Shown piece by piece: positions 27,539 to 32,680 of a stretch of DNA of 32,680 nucleotides (the first letter of the stretch is position 1; each line of letters opens with the position of its first letter). The stretch lies in the NCBI GenBank assembly GCA_029242545.1, contig JAQWTV010000145.1, positions 1 to 32,680 on the forward strand, read 5' to 3'. Made by a program: the position numbers and the translations under genes. Under the pieces are notes generated by a model. That model was not told the origin of the DNA. It saw only the letters and a list, made by a program, of their open reading frames with translations, and did not search any database. This stretch comes from Roseibacillus sp. Its GTDB lineage: Bacteria > Verrucomicrobiota > Verrucomicrobiia > Verrucomicrobiales > Akkermansiaceae.

Positions 27539-27946
27539 TTAGCACGTTGGGGAGAGGCTAGAGCCGTCGAACGCCGAAGGCAGCAGCTGCTTGAGGCTTA
27601 CCCTCCCGACGGCGCCCTTTTGTGGATCTACCAAAAACACAACGAGGTCAGGGCTGAACTCATAGAGAACTTGCCGGCAAGCTCCACAGGGGGCCGGAGC
27701 CCCGGGCGCACAGACTACAATAACGTCAAACTCACTCTCCCCCTCCGAAACGGCCTTGGAGAGAGCCACTCGCTCGGAACAGATTGTGAGTCCATAGGAA
27801 GAATTTTCTACGTTACAGCCCGTGAAAATACGCCCAGAACGAGTGCGAAGCGCAGAGCCGACTCGAAACCCAGAATAAGGCGCATAGGCGTGCTCGCGGG
27901 CATCCCTGGCAGCCTGAACCAAATCCTTGTCCGCTCCCTCACTCAT
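27539..27946 (-). CDS. cdd: Cytidine deaminase
   Basis: This 135-residue protein is the short tetrameric form of cytidine deaminase, which converts cytidine and deoxycytidine to the uridine forms in pyrimidine salvage. The N-terminal YAPYSGFRVGSAL is typical. The zinc site is CNVENSSYGLTICSERVAL, with Cys as first ligand and the catalytic Glu, together with PCGACRQVL, which gives the two other Cys ligands. The ATG at 27946 has only a GAG element ahead. It stands alone between the AraC gene and the intergenic structured region. Confidence 0.95.
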   Translation of the reverse strand: MSEGADKDLVQAARDAREHAYAPYSGFRVGSALRTRSGRIFTGCNVENSSYGLTICSERVALSKAVSEGESEFDVIVVCAPGAPAPCGACRQVLYEFSPDLVVFLVDPQKGAVGRVSLKQLLPSAFDGSSLSPTC

Positions 27947-28361
27947 GGCTCTGTGACTAGCGCGGGTGATTCTCGCCTCTGAGTGATCCGCCCAAGGCTC
28001 GTCGGAACCATAGAGGAGGTCATAAGCTTCATGGTCATAAAGATGGATTAAATACTAGGCGATGTGTAGCTAAATCGCCCTGTAGAGACTAAAATCCCCG
28101 CTTTTATCCTGAGCGTTTTTTCCGCTTGAACAGTAATTTTACTGAGGATTTTAGTCATCTATCCTCCAATTTCCCACACTCCCCATGAAGTTTGGCCGCT
28201 TCCTCGAGGTCACTTTTCTCGAAGCTTCCGGAGGCTTCTGGGCGACCCCTTTGGTCTGTGCCAACGCGCCGCCACTCTCGGGGCCTTCTCGCCCCCCGCT
28301 GACCATCAACTCAGTTTTGCAGACTAGATTTGCAGCCTTGCGGCGGCCTCAACTCCGAGTA
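27947..28361. other. Long intergenic region with hairpins and inverted repeats
   Basis: About 415 bp with no gene of normal size. It holds several structures. A perfect 6-bp hairpin GGCGAT/ATCGCC lies at 28058-28079. A long inverted repeat spans 28083-28160 and is listed separately. An imperfect palindrome around GAAGCTTCCGGAGGCTTC lies near 28219-28236, and a GGGGC/GCCCC hairpin near 28279-28294. A strong AGGAGGT at 28014-28020 precedes a six-codon ORF (M-V-I-K-M-D) at 28031-28051. An upstream extension of the hydrolase-fold ORF runs through the last part, but its reading there looks unlike a protein. Confidence 0.5.
28083..28160. repeat. 78-bp element with near-perfect terminal inverted repeats
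   Basis: The ends read TAGAGACTAAAATCC and, on the other strand, TAGATGACTAAAATCC. They share a perfect 11-bp core, GACTAAAATCC at 28087-28097 and GGATTTTAGTC at 28146-28156. The inside holds a CAGTAA/TTACTG hairpin (28131-28144) and a short GC hairpin. It could be a MITE-like element, or an RNA that folds into one long stem. Only one copy lies in this window. Confidence 0.5.
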
Positions 28362-29276
28362 ATGTTATATTGCATGCCCCCTGCCTCTCTCCTGAAAACT
28401 CTCACCACGGCCACGGCAATTGTCGCCCTCGCCGGGCAAGGGGTAACCCGGGAAGAGGATGCGGTCGCTCCTCCCACAAAGAGCGAGGTTACACCGCGCG
28501 AAGCTACCGAAAATGCCGAAGCCGGCTTTACCTCGGAGGAGGTCACCTTCAAGGCCGGGGAAATTGTTTCCAAGGCCTACCTCGCCCTTCCGGCAAAAAA
28601 AGAGTCAGGGACTTACCCTGGCATTTTGGTATGTCCAGAATGGTGGGGGCATAACGACTACGTCCGCATGAGGGCGGAAATGCTCGCCAAGCTCGGCTAC
28701 GCTGCACTGGCCATGGACGTTTACGGGGACGGGAAGAAAGCACACGACCCAAAGGCCGCAGTGTCCCTGGATGGCGCCCTTAAGGCAAACCAACGCGAAA
28801 TGAACGCCAGAGTGCTTGCACACCTGAAGTTTCTTCAGGGAAGGCCAGAAGTAGATCAGGCACGGGTTGCTGCTATCGGATATGGAAGCGGCGGAGACGT
28901 CTGCCTCCAAATGGCAAGGAACGGAATGCGCGGACTCGGAGGAGTGGTCGCCTTTCATCCCCTATTCAATGTCGTTCCCTCTCAACCCCCCATCCGAAAA
29001 GCAACAGCAAAGGTGATGGTCTGCGATGCCCAGGAGGACCCTTACGTCCACCTTCGAAAGGGAAAAGTGGCGGCCTTCCGTAAGGAAATGGCGAGCGTCC
29101 GAACAGATCTTGTGATCATTCCATTCCCTGACGCGATGCAGAGCTTTACCGTTCCGAACGCCGACATCGTTGGCGAAAAGTTCCGAATTCCACAGGCCTA
29201 CAGTCCTGAGGCTGACAAGAAAGCCTGGGGCCTTCTCCGGGGATTCCTTAAGGACCTGTGGGACTCACCCCAATAG
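28362..29276 (+). CDS. Secreted dienelactone-hydrolase-fold protein, predicted catalytically altered
   Basis: Starting at the ATG at 28362 (GAG upstream; an ATG at 28374 is also possible), it has a signal peptide (KTLTTATAIVALAGQG). The dienelactone hydrolase fold follows: VCPEWWGHNDYVR, LAMDVYGDGK, VDQARVAAIGYGSGG and the closing PNAD...AYSPEADKKAWGLLRGFLKD. The family nucleophile is the Cys of G-x-C-x-G-G. Here the elbow reads GYGSGG, so Gly175 stands at that place. The His expected before the SFT or AFT strand is Gln260 (DAMQSFT). The Asp is retained (Asp226 in QEDPYV). Two of three triad residues are thus replaced, although Ser176 lies one residue off. It is probably a binding protein or has different chemistry. 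It lies 51 bp before the first selenoprotein gene. Confidence 0.8.
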   Translation: MLYCMPPASLLKTLTTATAIVALAGQGVTREEDAVAPPTKSEVTPREATENAEAGFTSEEVTFKAGEIVSKAYLALPAKKESGTYPGILVCPEWWGHNDYVRMRAEMLAKLGYAALAMDVYGDGKKAHDPKAAVSLDGALKANQREMNARVLAHLKFLQGRPEVDQARVAAIGYGSGGDVCLQMARNGMRGLGGVVAFHPLFNVVPSQPPIRKATAKVMVCDAQEDPYVHLRKGKVAAFRKEMASVRTDLVIIPFPDAMQSFTVPNADIVGEKFRIPQAYSPEADKKAWGLLRGFLKDLWDSPQ

Positions 29277-29325
29277 TTCTGGAAAAGCCCAGAACATGAT
29301 TCCGCATCTCCCCGCTTTTCCAGAA
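29277..29325 (+). promoter_or_regulatory. 12-bp inverted repeat with two competing hairpins ahead of the first selenoprotein gene
   Basis: TTCTGGAAAAGC (29277-29288) and GCTTTTCCAGAA (29314-29325) are a perfect 12-bp inverted repeat directly after the hydrolase-fold stop codon and two bases before the GTG start. The first half can also pair locally: TTCTGG (29277-29282) with CCAGAA (29289-29294) around AAAAGC. The two folds exclude each other. No T-tract follows, so this is not a normal terminator and might be an operator, attenuator or translation switch. Confidence 0.5.
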
Positions 29326-29327
29326 CC

Positions 29328-29921
29328 GTGAATAACCAACCCTTTCATTTCGTAGGCCGGTGGTCCCTCCTGCTCGTGGGCATTTCCAGCCTCGTGATGC
29401 TTGTCTCCTGCAAAGAGACAGGGCCCCCCATCAACACGAGGCCTCCCGAGGGACTACAGGAGCGCCCTCCGGTTCCTGAGCCTGCAGTCGTCACTGCTCT
29501 CAAAGCGCAGGCGTTCGGCAGCAAGCTTCTTGGCCTGACATATTATCTCGTCCGGGGTGATTATGTGCGGGCCGATCTGCCAAAAGCACCCAGATATTAT
29601 CTCCTCAATTTCAGTGGAAGTACCTGAGGTCCCTGCCGAGAGCATGCTCCAGAGTTGCTGGAGAAATACCAAAGGCAGATCGCGGCAAACCCCGAAGTGG
29701 AACTGGTCCACGTTAGCTGCGATGAGGTTGAGTCGGACGCTCTTAAATGGGCCCAAGAAGTAGGGTTTACATGGCCAACGGTTCTCTTTCCTGACCTCGA
29801 GCGTGCTGGACTCACCAAGTATGACGCCTGGCCCGGCGAGGTGCGGCTCGTAGACAGTGAGGGCAGCGTTCTCACCAAGAATGAGAGTGAGGCCTTTGCG
29901 ACAATTTCCATAAAAAATTGA
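29328..29921 (+). CDS. Selenocysteine-containing thioredoxin-fold lipoprotein (Sec100, U-G-P-C)
   Basis: Read through the in-frame UGA at 29625-29627, this is a single 197-residue protein. It begins at a GTG with a lipoprotein signal ending in LVSC (lipobox). A Pro-rich linker leads to a thioredoxin-like domain: YYLLNFSGST, then U-G-P-C-R at residues 100-104, then APELLEKYQ, a VELVHVS strand, FTWPTVLFPD and the WPGEVRLVDSEG region. The UGA stands where the first Cys of CGPC should be, and the resolving Cys103 is present. Downstream frame and fold continue to a second UGA that ends the protein. A hairpin 25 nt after the first UGA fits a bacterial SECIS. A conventional caller would report a 99-residue ORF and an orphan 88-residue ORF. 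It is a paralogue of the next gene and would act as an envelope-anchored thiol reductase or oxidase. Confidence 0.85.
29645..29665 (+). promoter_or_regulatory. Candidate bacterial SECIS hairpin of the first selenoprotein
   Basis: CTCCAG (29647-29652) pairs with CTGGAG (29658-29663) around an AGTTG loop, with an outer T-A pair beyond a G-A mismatch. The loop begins 25 nt after UGA and has G in its second position. Both fit the published bacterial SECIS pattern (apical loop 16-37 nt from UGA, G among the first two loop bases), which SelB would bind. The same loop and spacing occur in the second gene. Confidence 0.75.
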
Positions 29922-29944
29922 CATATTTTCTTCCCCCGTAACGT
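29918..29944 (+). promoter_or_regulatory. Weak candidate promoter for the second selenoprotein gene
   Basis: A perfect TTGACA -35 element (29918-29923) overlaps the stop of the first selenoprotein gene. TAACGT lies 15 bp downstream, a poor -10 at short spacing. It could give the second gene some independent expression. There is no other strong promoter in the 58-bp gap. Confidence 0.25.
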
Positions 29945-29979
29945 TTCTTTCTAACATAAGCCCCGTTATCCTGACCCTG

Positions 29980-30702
29980 ATGAATCTAAAAATATTACTC
30001 TTTGCCGCCTCTCTGGCTCTTGTCGGTCAAGGCCCTCTCGCTGCCCGGACATGGACCAGTGCCGATGGCTCCCAAACCTTTGAAGGAGAATTGCGCGCCC
30101 TGAGTGAGAGAACTAAAACGGTCACCGTTCTCATGGAGGGCGGTAAGCTAAGGACCTTCGCAATCCGCCTCCTCTCGGAAACAGACCGAAATTTTCTTAA
30201 GACAGAAGGCCACAAAATCCTTCTCGCTGCGAGTGCCGGAGAAGGAGCCGACGACGACTTGCAGGACCATAAAATTAGCAAGAATCTGGCGAAGGAAGGA
30301 GTCCTTTCCAAGATTGAGGGAGAGAGCTTTGCCGGGCATAAGCTCACCAAGACCCCTGACTATTACATCGTGTATTTTTCGGCGAGTTGGTGACCCCCCT
30401 GTCGCACTTCTGCTCCACAGTTGGTGAAGCAATACCAAGCCGAGATCGCAAATAATCCTGCCGTCGAGATGATCCATGTCAGCCTCGACCGTGACAAGAA
30501 GGCCGCCGAGACCTGGGCAGCCAAAGAAGCGTTTCCCTGGCCTACGGTCATGATGGATAAAATAAAGGCTAGTGGGTTCGAGGATTACATGCCCCGCGCG
30601 GTCCCCAATTACAAACTTCTCAGCAAGGACGGCAAGATCGTAGCAGAGGGAAAGGCCGAAGTATTCGCCAAGGCCACGGAGCTTACGAAGGAAGAAACAT
30701 AA
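29980..30702 (+). CDS. Selenocysteine-containing secreted thioredoxin-fold protein with SHD1-like N-domain (Sec138, U-P-P-C)
   Basis: Read through the in-frame UGA at 30391-30393, this is one 240-residue protein. It has a signal peptide (residues 1-22, ending LAA). An SHD1-like domain follows (RTWTSADGSQTFEGEL, with TFAIRLLSETDRNFL), a module common in Planctomycetes and Verrucomicrobia envelope proteins. The thioredoxin-like domain then starts: YYIVYFSASW, U-P-P-C-R at residues 138-142, APQLVKQYQ, VEMIHVSLDRD, FPWPTVMMD and the cis-Pro region AVPNYKLLSKDG. This matches the tryparedoxin/nucleoredoxin type with WCPPC, where UGA takes the place of the first Cys. Cys141 is retained. It ends at TAA. 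The C-terminal domain is a clear paralogue of the previous gene. A covarying hairpin follows the UGA. Split calling would give 137- and about 93-residue pieces. Confidence 0.87.
30411..30431 (+). promoter_or_regulatory. Candidate bacterial SECIS hairpin of the second selenoprotein
   Basis: TGCTCCAC (30411-30418) pairs with GTGAAGCA (30424-30431) around the loop AGTTG, with one C-A mismatch. The loop starts 25 nt after UGA, exactly as in the first gene. The pair next to the loop is C-G here and G-C in the first gene, a compensatory change. Confidence 0.77.
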
Positions 30703-30783
30703 GCCCTCCGGAAGATTGTGCTCGCATTAGCGACTCATCTGAAGCGCCCTCTTCCGACTCCGATGCCACATACATTCTAGCTC

Positions 30784-31104
30784 ATGAAAAATCTCATCCT
30801 ATTAGCACTTCTGCTCACCGTTCCCTGTCTGTGCTCCTGCACGCTTGCGGGAAGGCTCATTCAGGCTCCCGTCAGGCTGATACAGGCAGGCGTGCGGACG
30901 GTCACTGATGTGGGGGAGAAGGAGGTCCCCGCGACTGCAGACTCGTTGCGGCTGCATGGCATCGCTCTGAATCACTCCGCGACCACTCCACCTCACGACC
31001 AATTCACCGTAGCGCCCTCGCAATCAGGAATCCTGCCGGAGAATCCGGCGTCCTCCCTCAGGGGTCAGCTTCAGCCTGAGTCTCAAGGTCCCAGCAGGAA
31101 GTAA
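30784..31104 (+). CDS. Small lipoprotein, unknown function
   Basis: A 106-residue protein with a lipoprotein signal: MKNLILLALLLTVPC then lipobox LCSC, so the mature protein would start at Cys19. The mature part has a short amphipathic segment (LAGRLIQAPVRLIQAGVRTV) and then a low-complexity, Pro/Ser-rich tail. I do not recognise a family. It follows the selenoproteins by 81 bp on the same strand and could be co-transcribed. Its last 81 bp overlap the 3' end of tsaE on the opposite strand, so the tail may be less constrained or the true end uncertain. Confidence 0.65.
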   Translation: MKNLILLALLLTVPCLCSCTLAGRLIQAPVRLIQAGVRTVTDVGEKEVPATADSLRLHGIALNHSATTPPHDQFTVAPSQSGILPENPASSLRGQLQPESQGPSRK

Positions 31105-31449
31105 GCCGGCAAACTTGCTGGCCCACTCTACCACAACCACTCCGGCTGGGTCCTCCAGAAGGTCATCCCACCCGAGAGCCAGGATCTCCTGCTCGCCTTC
31201 TACCCGATAGAAATCGAGGTGATACAGGACCCGTTTCCCTGCAGCGTATTCGTGGAGCAGGGTAAAGGTAGGGCTGGTAACCAGCCCATCATGACCCATG
31301 CCAGCAGCGAGCCCCTTGACGAATTCCGTCTTTCCGGCCCCCAGATCGCCATCTAGGCCAATTACCGCGCCAGACTCCACTTCTTGCGCCAGTTCATGAC
31401 CAAGAGCGCGCATTTCGCCGGTATTCTCGCATATCCGGGGGAAATCCAT
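31024..31449 (-). CDS. tsaE: tRNA N6-threonylcarbamoyladenosine biosynthesis ATPase TsaE
   Basis: From the ATG at 31449 this is a 141-residue TsaE (YjeE) protein, the small ATPase that works with TsaB and TsaD to make the t6A37 modification of ANN-decoding tRNAs. Walker A is GDLGAGKT (residues 34-41). The SPTFTLLHEY switch, the LYHLDFYRV segment and VVVVEWASKF follow as expected. The length is normal for the family. An upstream extension to 31575 would run into the rplU start region and is not supported. It is divergent from rplU and overlaps the small lipoprotein gene at its 3' end. Confidence 0.95.
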   Translation of the reverse strand: MDFPRICENTGEMRALGHELAQEVESGAVIGLDGDLGAGKTEFVKGLAAGMGHDGLVTSPTFTLLHEYAAGKRVLYHLDFYRVEGEQEILALGWDDLLEDPAGVVVVEWASKFAGLLPAGTLRLRLKLTPEGGRRILRQDS

Positions 31450-31574
31450 ACCTTCGGACTCTGCCTCGCTCCTGCGCCTTTGGCAAAAATTTCTTGCTCC
31501 CCCGGTGAGCCTGTGGTGAATTCCCCGCCCGCTTCGCCTCTGGCGCGGCAACTCCATCCCGTCCCCTAAAAACA

Positions 31575-31889
31575 ATGGCCTACGCAGTATTCAAGACCGG
31601 CGGCAAACAGTATCGCGTCCAAGAGGGCGACAAACTCGATATTGAAAAGCTCGAGGGCGAAGTCGATGGCGAGGTCCAGTTCGGCGAGGTTCTTCTCGTA
31701 AACGACGGCTCCGCCACCACAGTCGGAACTCCTCTCGTTGAGGGCGCGGCAGTGACCGCAAAGGTTCTCGATCAATTCCGTGGGCCCAAGGGTGTCGCTT
31801 TCAAGTTCAAGCGCCGCAAGGGTCATCACAAAACCAAGGGATACCGGAGAGCTCTCACCAAGGTTGAAATTACCAGTATTGCTGGATAA
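31575..31889 (+). CDS. rplU: 50S ribosomal protein L21
   Basis: A 104-residue protein with the L21 start [19 protein letters not shown], the central [19 protein letters not shown] and the basic C-terminal [23 protein letters not shown]21 binds 23S rRNA in the large subunit. It is the first gene of the usual rplU-rpmA operon and is divergent from tsaE. The 125-bp gap before it should hold its promoter, but I see no clear consensus. Confidence 0.98.
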
Positions 31890-31920
31890 AGATTTTTCAG
31901 AATTACAAACTCAGGATCTC

Positions 31921-32175
31921 ATGGCTCATAAGAAAGGACAAGGATCGGTCAAGAATGGACGCGACTCACGCAGCAAGCGGCTCGGAGTTAAAAAGTTCGG
32001 AGGAGAGGCTGTCATTGCCGGCAACATCATCATCCGGCAGCGGGGAACCAAATGGCAACCAGGAGAGAACGTAGGGCTAGGTCGCGATCATACCATTTTC
32101 GCACTGGTTGATGGGAGTGTCTATTTCGACCGCCAGGGACGCCGCGTCAATGTCGCGGAACCTGCGGCGAGCTAG
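31921..32175 (+). CDS. rpmA: 50S ribosomal protein L27
   Basis: An 84-residue L27 with the N-terminal [19 protein letters not shown] that reaches towards the peptidyl transferase centre, followed by [21 protein letters not shown] and [14 protein letters not shown]. It starts 31 bp after rplU. The start at 31921 is fixed by the family's MAHKK. There is no N-terminal extension of the Firmicutes cleaved type. A terminator follows. Confidence 0.98.
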
Positions 32176-32239
32176 ACGACAATTCCAGAATCGTCCTAGC
32201 TATCATCACGGCGACTCCCTAGGGGGTCGCTTTTCTTTT
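32171..32239 (+). terminator. Rho-independent terminator after rpmA
   Basis: GCGACTCCC (32211-32219) pairs with GGGGGTCGC (32222-32230), with one G-T pair and a tight TA-centred loop, and TTTTCTTTT follows at 32231-32239. An additional hairpin (GCTAGACGA with TCGTCCTAGC, one bulge) overlaps the stop codon at 32171-32200. Together they should end the rplU-rpmA transcript. Confidence 0.8.
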
Positions 32240-32284
32240 GCTGCTTTCTCTGAAGCGCATGCGAGCCTCCAGTTTCCCTCTAAA

Positions 32285-32680
32285 ATGTTCAATCTCGTCC
32301 TCGTTGCACCTGAGATCCCGCACAATGCCGGTGCGGCGGGTCGACTATGCCTTGCTACGGGATCTACTCTCCACCTCGTCAAGCCGCTTGGGTTTTCGCT
32401 AGAAGACAAACAAATCCGCAGAGCGGGCCTAGACTACTGGAAGGACGTTAAGGTGAAGGTCTGGAACTCTCTCGAGGAGCTTCTCGGGGAGGCCGCTCCA
32501 GAGCAGGTTTGGTTCCTCACAACCAAGGGAGCGACTGCCCTTTGGGATATTAACTTCCATCGAGGAGACTACCTGGTATGCGGATGTGAAACCCGTGGAC
32601 TGCCTGAATCCCTTCTTTCCGATTTTCCAAATCGCCTTGTGCGGATTCCAATGGCGAAAGACGGAACCAGATCGCTGAAC
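32285..32680 (+). CDS. trmL: tRNA (cytidine/uridine-2'-O-)-methyltransferase TrmL, 5' part
   Basis: The reading frame from the ATG at 32285 is open to the end of the window (132 codons) and is cut there. It begins MFNLVLVAPEIPHNAGAAGR, the SPOUT-family start, and continues with TGSTLHLVKPLGFSLEDK, the RRAGLDYW motif, CGCETRGLP and RIPMAKDGTRSLN, which is the SAM-binding knot ending. TrmL methylates the wobble nucleotide 34 of certain leucine tRNAs at the 2'-OH. Only the last two or three dozen residues should be missing. Cys replaces the usual Ser in the G-[ST]-E-T-R-G-L segment, a minor variation. Confidence 0.93.
   Translation, partial: MFNLVLVAPEIPHNAGAAGRLCLATGSTLHLVKPLGFSLEDKQIRRAGLDYWKDVKVKVWNSLEELLGEAAPEQVWFLTTKGATALWDINFHRGDYLVCGCETRGLPESLLSDFPNRLVRIPMAKDGTRSLN

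What the first reader, a model, noticed from the sequence alone, without database searches (positions are those of the whole stretch)
29980..30702. Second tandem selenoprotein: SHD1-thioredoxin fusion with U-P-P-C
The next gene shows the same pattern independently: UGA at 30391 follows FSASW and precedes PPCRT, replacing the first Cys of WCPPC. Two neighbouring genes with in-frame UGA at the same functional residue cannot reasonably be two independent inactivating mutations. The N-terminal SHD1-like module joined to a Sec-containing redox domain is an unusual architecture.
Basis: partly seen in the sequence, partly recalled or inferred. Interest (0 to 1): 0.93.

Follow-up and report, generated by a model that had tools for sequence, protein, structure and literature searches.

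The report
Secreted selenocysteine thioredoxin of Verrucomicrobiota
A UGA stop codon stands exactly where a thioredoxin-like gene should have its active-site cysteine, and because relatives share this codon together with a matching RNA hairpin just after it, it is very likely read as the rare amino acid selenocysteine, so that this gene and its neighbour would make full-length selenium-containing redox proteins that ordinary gene annotation cuts short.

Summary
ORF 29980-30702 has one in-frame UGA (30391-30393) at the first cysteine of a thioredoxin W-C-P-P-C motif; the upstream gene (29328-29921) has one at 29625-29627. In 80 related domains the column is UGA in 67, Cys in 13. A hairpin 25 nt after the UGA has an invariant A-G loop start and a covarying stem, far exceeds synonymous-codon shuffles, and fits the published bacterial SECIS model in loop, stem and spacing; its energy is marginal. 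Codons after the UGA are under purifying selection. The genome has selA, selB and selD; tRNA-Sec is whole in 12 of 15 UGA-bearing genomes, but only a 33-nt contig-end fragment in the own genome. UGA-hairpin model hits sit in genomes with selA (54 of 56). So this is almost certainly a selenoprotein: a TlpA/ResA-like thioredoxin with an SHD1-like N-terminus, widespread in Verrucomicrobiales. Sec thioredoxin-like proteins are known; this architecture was not in the 2026 inventory passages read. Selenium incorporation and function are untested.

The parts
29980..30702 (+). Selenoprotein gene: hydrophobic N-terminus (by eye), SHD1-like beta module (about residues 21-66), linker, TlpA/ResA-like thioredoxin domain (about residues 97-239); TAA stop at 30700-30702
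30391..30393 (+). In-frame UGA (predicted Sec138) in W-U-P-P-C, at the column that is UGA in 67 and Cys in 13 of 80 related domains
30411..30431 (+). Predicted SECIS hairpin UGCU-C-CAC[AGUUG]GUG-A-AGCA; loop 30419-30423, 25 nt after the UGA
   Evidence: model constraints from PMC13188914
29328..29921 (+). Upstream paralogous selenoprotein gene, 197 codons plus stop; lipobox-like LVSC by eye; terminates at UGA 29919-29921
29625..29627 (+). In-frame UGA (predicted Sec) of the upstream gene, GST-U-GPC
29647..29663 (+). Predicted SECIS hairpin of the upstream gene, CUCCAG[AGUUG]CUGGAG; the loop-closing pair is G-C where gene 2 has C-G
29919..29921 (+). UGA used as terminator of the upstream gene; no hairpin follows (45 nt fold at 0 kcal/mol); UGA terminator in 8 of 8 copies examined, the window's included

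Best explanation
The gene at 29980-30702 is predicted to be a selenoprotein: its in-frame UGA stands at the first cysteine of a thioredoxin W-C-P-P-C motif and is likely decoded as selenocysteine by SelB and tRNA-Sec, directed by a hairpin 25 nt downstream whose stem covaries across relatives. Steps shown by sequence: UGA conservation, the Sec/Cys exchange column, the hairpin, purifying selection after the UGA, and the selA/selB/selD genes. Steps inferred: selenium is incorporated; the hydrophobic N-terminus exports the protein; in the periplasm the Sec138 selenolate attacks substrate disulfides (or oxidised selenium or sulfur species), Cys141 resolves the selenenylsulfide, and a membrane thiol donor (DsbD/CcdA type, not searched for) re-reduces it. 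The SHD1-like module would bind a partner or the envelope. The upstream paralogue, probably a lipoprotein, would work alongside it.
For: Column UGA 67, Cys 13, other 0 of 80 domains; resolving Cys in 79 of 80. Of 50 database relatives of P0001, 22 end exactly at SASW, one residue before the UGA. Hairpin: 90.9% of cells paired, 5 of 6 pairs with a change on both sides, covariation score 0.186 against 0.072 in shuffles, 0 of 500 as high. At least 5 of 6 pairs in 64 of 67 UGA genes against 4 of 13 Cys genes; observed mean 5.45 pairs (Cys genes 3.92) against 3.08 (sd 0.11, maximum 3.39) in 1000 synonymous-codon shuffles of the UGA genes. Leu in the loop codon is TTG/TTA in 59 of 59, against 82 of 681 Leu codons elsewhere in the same domains. 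dN/dS after the UGA 0.065, 0.031, 0.074 and 0.171 in four comparisons, each lower than before the UGA. selA, selB and selD over cut-off, with SelB winged-helix domains present. UGA-hairpin model hits in 56 of 288 genomes, 54 of which have selA, against 39 of 232 without a hit. tRNA-Sec over cut-off in 12 of 15 UGA genomes. Fold: StoA/ResA and tryparedoxin-like.
Against: No whole tRNA-Sec gene was found in the window's own assembly, only 33 nt at a contig end; none was found in G278 and G068 either, which carry the UGA gene. The gene-2 hairpin has a C-A mismatch and folds at -6.7 kcal/mol (22 nt) or -5.9 (21 nt), weaker than the published -7.5 cut-off; only the 45-nt stretch reaches -8.4. Fold-energy z-scores of the two 45-nt stretches are unremarkable (-0.57 and -0.45), RNAalifold kept only 3 of the 6 pairs, and in L033 and L026 the minimum-energy fold is another one. 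No Rfam SECIS match. No protein or selenium data.
Confidence: 0.96

Rival explanations
1. Two nonsense mutations or sequencing errors: both genes are pseudogenes or miscalled TGC/TGT.
For: A single base change separates TGA from TGC or TGT; the assembly is a draft in 175 contigs.
Against: UGA in 67 of 80 related domains from many separate genomes; dN/dS after the UGA lower than before it in all four comparisons of the window gene; conserved hairpin.
Confidence: 0.01
2. Genome-wide reassignment of UGA to another amino acid (code 4 or 25), not Sec.
For: A catalogued relative, P0003, shows Gly at this column, as a code-25 translation would; its DNA was not seen.
Against: The upstream gene itself ends at UGA in 8 of 8 copies examined; the genome has Sec machinery; in the 80 aligned domains only one further UGA occurs outside the Cys column.
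Confidence: 0.01
3. The UGA is recoded but inserts cysteine (Cys-tRNA with a UCA anticodon or mischarged tRNA-Sec) rather than Sec, always or in low selenium.
For: Cys is the alternative residue at the column; such Cys recoding is known in some bacteria (recalled, no call).
Against: SelA and SelD are present, and presence of selA tracks the UGA-hairpin across 288 genomes.
Confidence: 0.03
4. Selenium-controlled switch: UGA termination yields a stable N-terminal SHD1-like protein in low selenium and the full redox enzyme in high selenium, with both products functional.
For: The N-terminal module ends well before the UGA and is conserved among relatives.
Against: No evidence that the 137-aa product is stable; it would end just after a core strand of the thioredoxin fold (strand 128-134). 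The upstream paralogue shows no N-terminal domain match in Pfam at E up to 0.01.
Confidence: 0.08

Closest known systems
Thiol-disulfide isomerase-like selenoprotein, UxxC (Sargasso Sea; given as Thioredoxin_8 in PMC9312934 and cd02966 in PMC13188914; PMC1088965; passages read)
   Same: Sec in the first position of a UxxC motif in a thioredoxin fold; same Pfam family (Thioredoxin_8)
   Different: Listed without an SHD1-like N-terminus or a tandem arrangement in the passages read; whether its representative comes from Verrucomicrobiota was not checked
Redoxin family selenoprotein, UxxC (PF08534; PMC13188914 table, passage read)
   Same: UxxC; PF08534 also matches our protein (36.0 bits, cut-off 26.6)
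   Different: No N-terminal module named in the table
ResA / StoA / TlpA thiol-disulfide oxidoreductases
   Same: Fold; Foldseek best hits are StoA and ResA
   Different: They use CxxC; NCBIfam StoA 34.3 against cut-off 210, ResA 30.4 against 170, so not members
Tryparedoxin
   Different: Eukaryotic Cys enzymes; 21-24% identity
Cys-containing SHD1-thioredoxin proteins (P0027, P0031)
   Same: SHD1 plus thioredoxin architecture
   Different: Cys at the column; 24-26% identity to the window protein

Membership tests
Bacterial selenoprotein gene (UGA plus bSECIS) | In-frame UGA at a position where homologues have Cys | tested here: met
   67 UGA, 13 Cys of 80 domains; 29 UGA, 65 Cys of 94 in named genomes
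Bacterial selenoprotein gene (UGA plus bSECIS) | Hairpin with 3-9 nt loop, 4-16 bp upper stem, G in the first two loop positions, 16-37 nt from the UGA (PMC13188914) | tested here: met
   Loop AGUUG (5 nt), stem of 7 pairs with one internal mismatch (gene 2) or 6 pairs (gene 1), 25 nt spacing
Bacterial selenoprotein gene (UGA plus bSECIS) | Minimum free energy at most -7.5 kcal/mol (same model) | tested here: inconclusive
   Gene 1 hairpin -8.9; gene 2 hairpin -6.7 (22 nt) or -5.9 (21 nt), -8.4 over 45 nt
Bacterial selenoprotein gene (UGA plus bSECIS) | SelA, SelB and SelD encoded in the genome | tested here: met
   495, 279 and 368 bits, all over cut-off
Bacterial selenoprotein gene (UGA plus bSECIS) | tRNA-Sec gene in the genome | tested here: inconclusive
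   Own genome: 33 nt identical to the G223 tRNA-Sec, cut by a contig end; gene over cut-off in 12 of 15 UGA genomes
Bacterial selenoprotein gene (UGA plus bSECIS) | Selenium incorporated in the protein | not testable with these tools
   Needs 75Se labelling or mass spectrometry
Thioredoxin_8 family / thioredoxin fold | Pfam match over the curated cut-off and thioredoxin fold | tested here: met
   44.2 bits against 27; StoA/ResA as best Foldseek hits; model residues about 97-235 align to thioredoxin-fold chains
SHD1 (PF03983) | Match over the gathering score of 23.7 bits | tested here: not met
   Window protein and its N-terminus alone: no hit at E up to 1. Relatives: 14 of 30 match at E up to 1; of 9 UGA relatives scanned one by one, 5 match, all below the cut-off, 13.0-20.0 bits. 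Hence 'SHD1-like' only
Curated NCBIfam selenoprotein-related families (TsoB, SelL-related, TUGYCR redoxin) | Match over the curated cut-off | tested here: not met
   13.2 against 805, 12.5 against 120, 11.7 against 100 bits for the window protein

The most novel reading that the evidence does not exclude
A lineage-wide, uncatalogued family of exported selenocysteine thioredoxins in Verrucomicrobiales, kept in tandem pairs (a lipid-anchored U-G-P-C partner and a soluble SHD1-like U-P-P-C partner) that form an extracytoplasmic selenium redox relay, both driven by one ancestral covarying SECIS hairpin that decays when Sec reverts to Cys.
Probability: 0.4. Interest if true: 0.65.

Novelty: new variant of a known kind. 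Interest (0 to 1): 0.56.

Why it matters
It adds a selenoprotein architecture in a phylum for which the open-access title and abstract listings I searched showed no dedicated selenoprotein paper (two searches listed only 15 of 53 and 10 of 14). In the protein database 22 of 50 relatives are recorded cut off at the UGA. It offers a natural system for bacterial UGA recoding: dozens of homologues with one hairpin, compensatory stem changes, Sec/Cys exchanges, and a neighbouring gene that uses UGA both as likely Sec and as stop. A cultured strain, Rubritalea marina DSM 17716, carries the UGA form, so the prediction can be tested directly.

Tried and rejected
Rfam scan of the two genes found no SECIS family (two hits to other families, below their gathering scores). 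Rfam tRNA-Sec search in the own genome gave 8 sub-threshold hits; ARAGORN called each of the 8 as another tRNA (Ser, Leu, Gly, Met, Asp). ARAGORN found no tRNA genes in the fetched stretches around selA, selB and selD. RNAalifold on the alignment reported only 3 of the 6 pairs, and single-sequence fold z-scores were mostly weak, so the hairpin claim rests on covariation and the codon-level null model. A sigma-70 scan found 2 promoter-like sites (0.6 expected) and 1 terminator-like site (1.8 expected); none was used. Genes flanking three other loci, and one gene beside a fourth, are unrelated to each other (among them a TIM-barrel isomerase-like protein, a sulfate permease, PheT and pyruvate kinase), so context gives no function. 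Pseudogene, global code change and Cys recoding were considered and are given as rivals. The PDB second look covers residues 96-239 only, so the fold of the N-terminal module was not tested there. Papers: PMC13188914, PMC2398784, PMC4807772, PMC9312934 and PMC1088965 were seen as passages by term search, none in full; no supplements were looked at. All other papers were seen as search listings only.

Full report
What is in the sequence. ORF 29980-30702 starts at ATG, has a single in-frame UGA at 30391-30393 and stops at TAA 30700-30702; read with UGA as U it gives 240 residues with SASW-U-PPC. With C for U, Pfam finds Thioredoxin_8 (44.2 bits, cut-off 27), Redoxin, AhpC-TSA and Thioredoxin over their cut-offs. 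The upstream gene runs from GTG 29328 to a UGA stop at 29919-29921, has a UGA at 29625-29627 in GST-U-GPC, and matches Thioredoxin_8 at 34.8 bits. By eye gene 2 begins with a signal-peptide-like stretch and gene 1 has a lipobox-like LVSC; no predictor was run.

The column. P0001 was searched in 288 genomes of the order; 271 have a match at E up to 0.001. From the listed matches I took 70 loci: the 30 returned by that search and 40 chosen by me. They hold all but three of the UGA-marked matches listed (not fetched: G197, G006 at 3392655, G098) and only a sample of the listed matches without a stop. The 70 loci gave 80 thioredoxin domains: UGA 67, Cys 13, other 0 at this column; the resolving Cys is present in 79 of 80, the exception being L046, whose match has a TAG as well as the UGA. 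Because of my selection 67:13 is not a population frequency; the point is that only UGA or Cys occurs. A scan of named genomes returned 80 loci; 79 gave 94 domains at this column, 29 UGA (in 23 loci) and 65 Cys; some are the same genomes under other handles. The UGA loci include Roseibacillus sp., Akkermansiaceae and Verrucomicrobiales MAGs and the cultured Rubritalea marina DSM 17716. In a protein database search 22 of 50 relatives end exactly at SASW, just before the UGA. Of the other 28, a motif pattern finds Cys in 23 and Gly in one (P0003), and does not match in four.

Selection after the UGA. Against C127, G223, G278 and G250, dN/dS is 0.212, 0.167, 0.271 and 0.363 before the UGA and 0.065, 0.031, 0.074 and 0.171 after it. 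dS is saturated for the last two and high (1.0) after the UGA for G223, so those values are rough. The downstream part evolves as coding sequence and is more constrained than the upstream part.

The SECIS. The 60 nt from the UGA align without gaps in 67 genes. The six-pair stem (columns 23-28 with 34-39) forms standard pairs in 90.9% of cells; 5 of 6 pairs show changes on both sides; of the five measures four are reached by 0 of 500 shuffles and one (pairs with a change on both sides) by 3 of 500; sliding the partner by 1-3 columns drops pairing to 32-61%. The gene-1 group swaps the loop-closing C-G to G-C (4 sequences). Loops are AGUUG 38, AGUUA 21, AGGUU 5, AGUUU 2 and AGGUG 1; none of the 13 Cys genes has one of these loops. 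Against synonymous-codon shuffles the observed mean of 5.45 pairs compares with 3.08 (sd 0.11, maximum 3.39 of 1000); at least 5 of 6 pairs occur in 64 of 67 UGA genes and 4 of 13 Cys genes. Leu in the loop codon is TTG/TTA in 59 of 59 against 82 of 681 elsewhere in the same domains. This meets the published loop, G, stem and spacing constraints (PMC13188914, passage). Gene 2's hairpin is energetically marginal (-6.7 or -5.9 kcal/mol against the model's -7.5) and has a C-A mismatch, offset by two extra lower pairs. Single-sequence z-scores of the two window stretches are weak, RNAalifold reported only 3 pairs, and two relatives have other minimum-energy folds. The UGA terminator of gene 1 is followed by no hairpin (0 kcal/mol).

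Machinery. selA, selB and selD are over curated cut-offs in the own genome; the SelB ORF has SelB winged-helix and beta-barrel domains; SelD itself has an in-frame UGA. Whole tRNA-Sec was not found in the own genome. The G223 tRNA-Sec finds an identical 33-nt stretch that ends at contig edge C68:1, inside a 74-nt stretch at 90.5% identity, so the gene is probably cut by the assembly. Of 15 UGA genomes searched, 12 have tRNA-Sec over the cut-off; G000, G278 and G068 do not. ARAGORN called tRNA-SeC at the best locus of each of the 12 (7, 5), and in G201 and G249; further weaker matches in those genomes (L066-L072) were not run through ARAGORN.

Co-distribution. The UGA-hairpin covariance model hits 56 of 288 genomes at E up to 1e-4; selA is found in 93 of 288 (92 over cut-off). 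The overlap is 54 of 56, against 39 of 232 without a hit (Fisher p 2e-30). The exceptions are G249, which has a tRNA-Sec, and G199 (weak hit, not inspected). One hit, G135, is a Cys gene (L098), and the G269 hit begins after the UGA. The model was built from these genes, so only its absence from selA-less genomes is informative, and shared ancestry inflates the p value. In a phylum-wide draw of 288 genomes, 21 have a match at E up to 1e-18; the UGA forms listed there were in three genomes, all of the window's own family.

Evolution. A tree of 79 of the 80 domains (one under 90 residues dropped), with the Sec/Cys residue masked, needs 6 label changes, at least 4 forced by well-supported branches. 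The Cys gene L098 pairs with the Sec gene L101 at 100/100, and L032 (Cys) lies in a mostly Sec group of weaker support. In L032 loop and stem codons have changed, which suits hairpin decay after a Sec-to-Cys exchange; L098 still forms a five-pair stem at the same columns but with another loop. The direction of change is inferred.

Known or new. The 2026 inventory passages list UxxC thioredoxin, thiol-disulfide isomerase-like and redoxin selenoproteins but, in the passages read, no SHD1-type fusion; the terms Verrucomicrobi* and Planctomyc* do not occur in its main text. 'selenoprotein' with 'SHD1' returned one paper, on T cells; with 'Rubritalea' none; with 'Akkermansiaceae' 14, of which the 10 listed are health papers by title. 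I therefore file it as a new variant of a known kind: a bacterial UxxC selenoprotein with an SHD1-like N-terminus, spread and duplicated in Verrucomicrobiales.

Noticed in passing
29328-29921: The upstream gene uses UGA twice: as likely Sec codon (29625) and as its terminator (29919). The same holds in 8 of 8 copies examined (the window's included), always 98 codons apart: a natural contrast of UGA with and without hairpin.
   Followed up: partly
27864-32680 against contig G000:C127 (L073): Contig C127 looks like a second haplotype of the same locus: 97.2% identical over 27864-28292, 81.9% over 28283-30911 (both selenoprotein genes), 93.2% over 31032-32680, as if the middle had been exchanged by recombination.
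   Followed up: partly
L018 (G000:C5): selD of the same genome has an in-frame UGA (CAG-U-ASK), so SelD is probably itself a selenoprotein.
   Followed up: no
P0003: The only full-length database relative above 50% identity has Gly at the Sec column (SASWGGPC), possibly a UGA gene translated with code 25; its DNA was not seen.
   Followed up: no
L089/L061 (G091:C16:155891-156887): In G091 the tRNA-Sec gene lies about 270 bp from a UGA thioredoxin gene, on the opposite strand.
   Followed up: no
L024 (G250:C58), L031 (G283), L034 (G006), L080 (G193): Tandem arrays of two or three UGA thioredoxin genes in other genomes.
   Followed up: partly
L046 (G249): A UGA copy with an extra TAG and a disturbed frame around the motif, in a genome where selA was not found but tRNA-Sec was: perhaps a decaying copy or an assembly error.
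   Followed up: no
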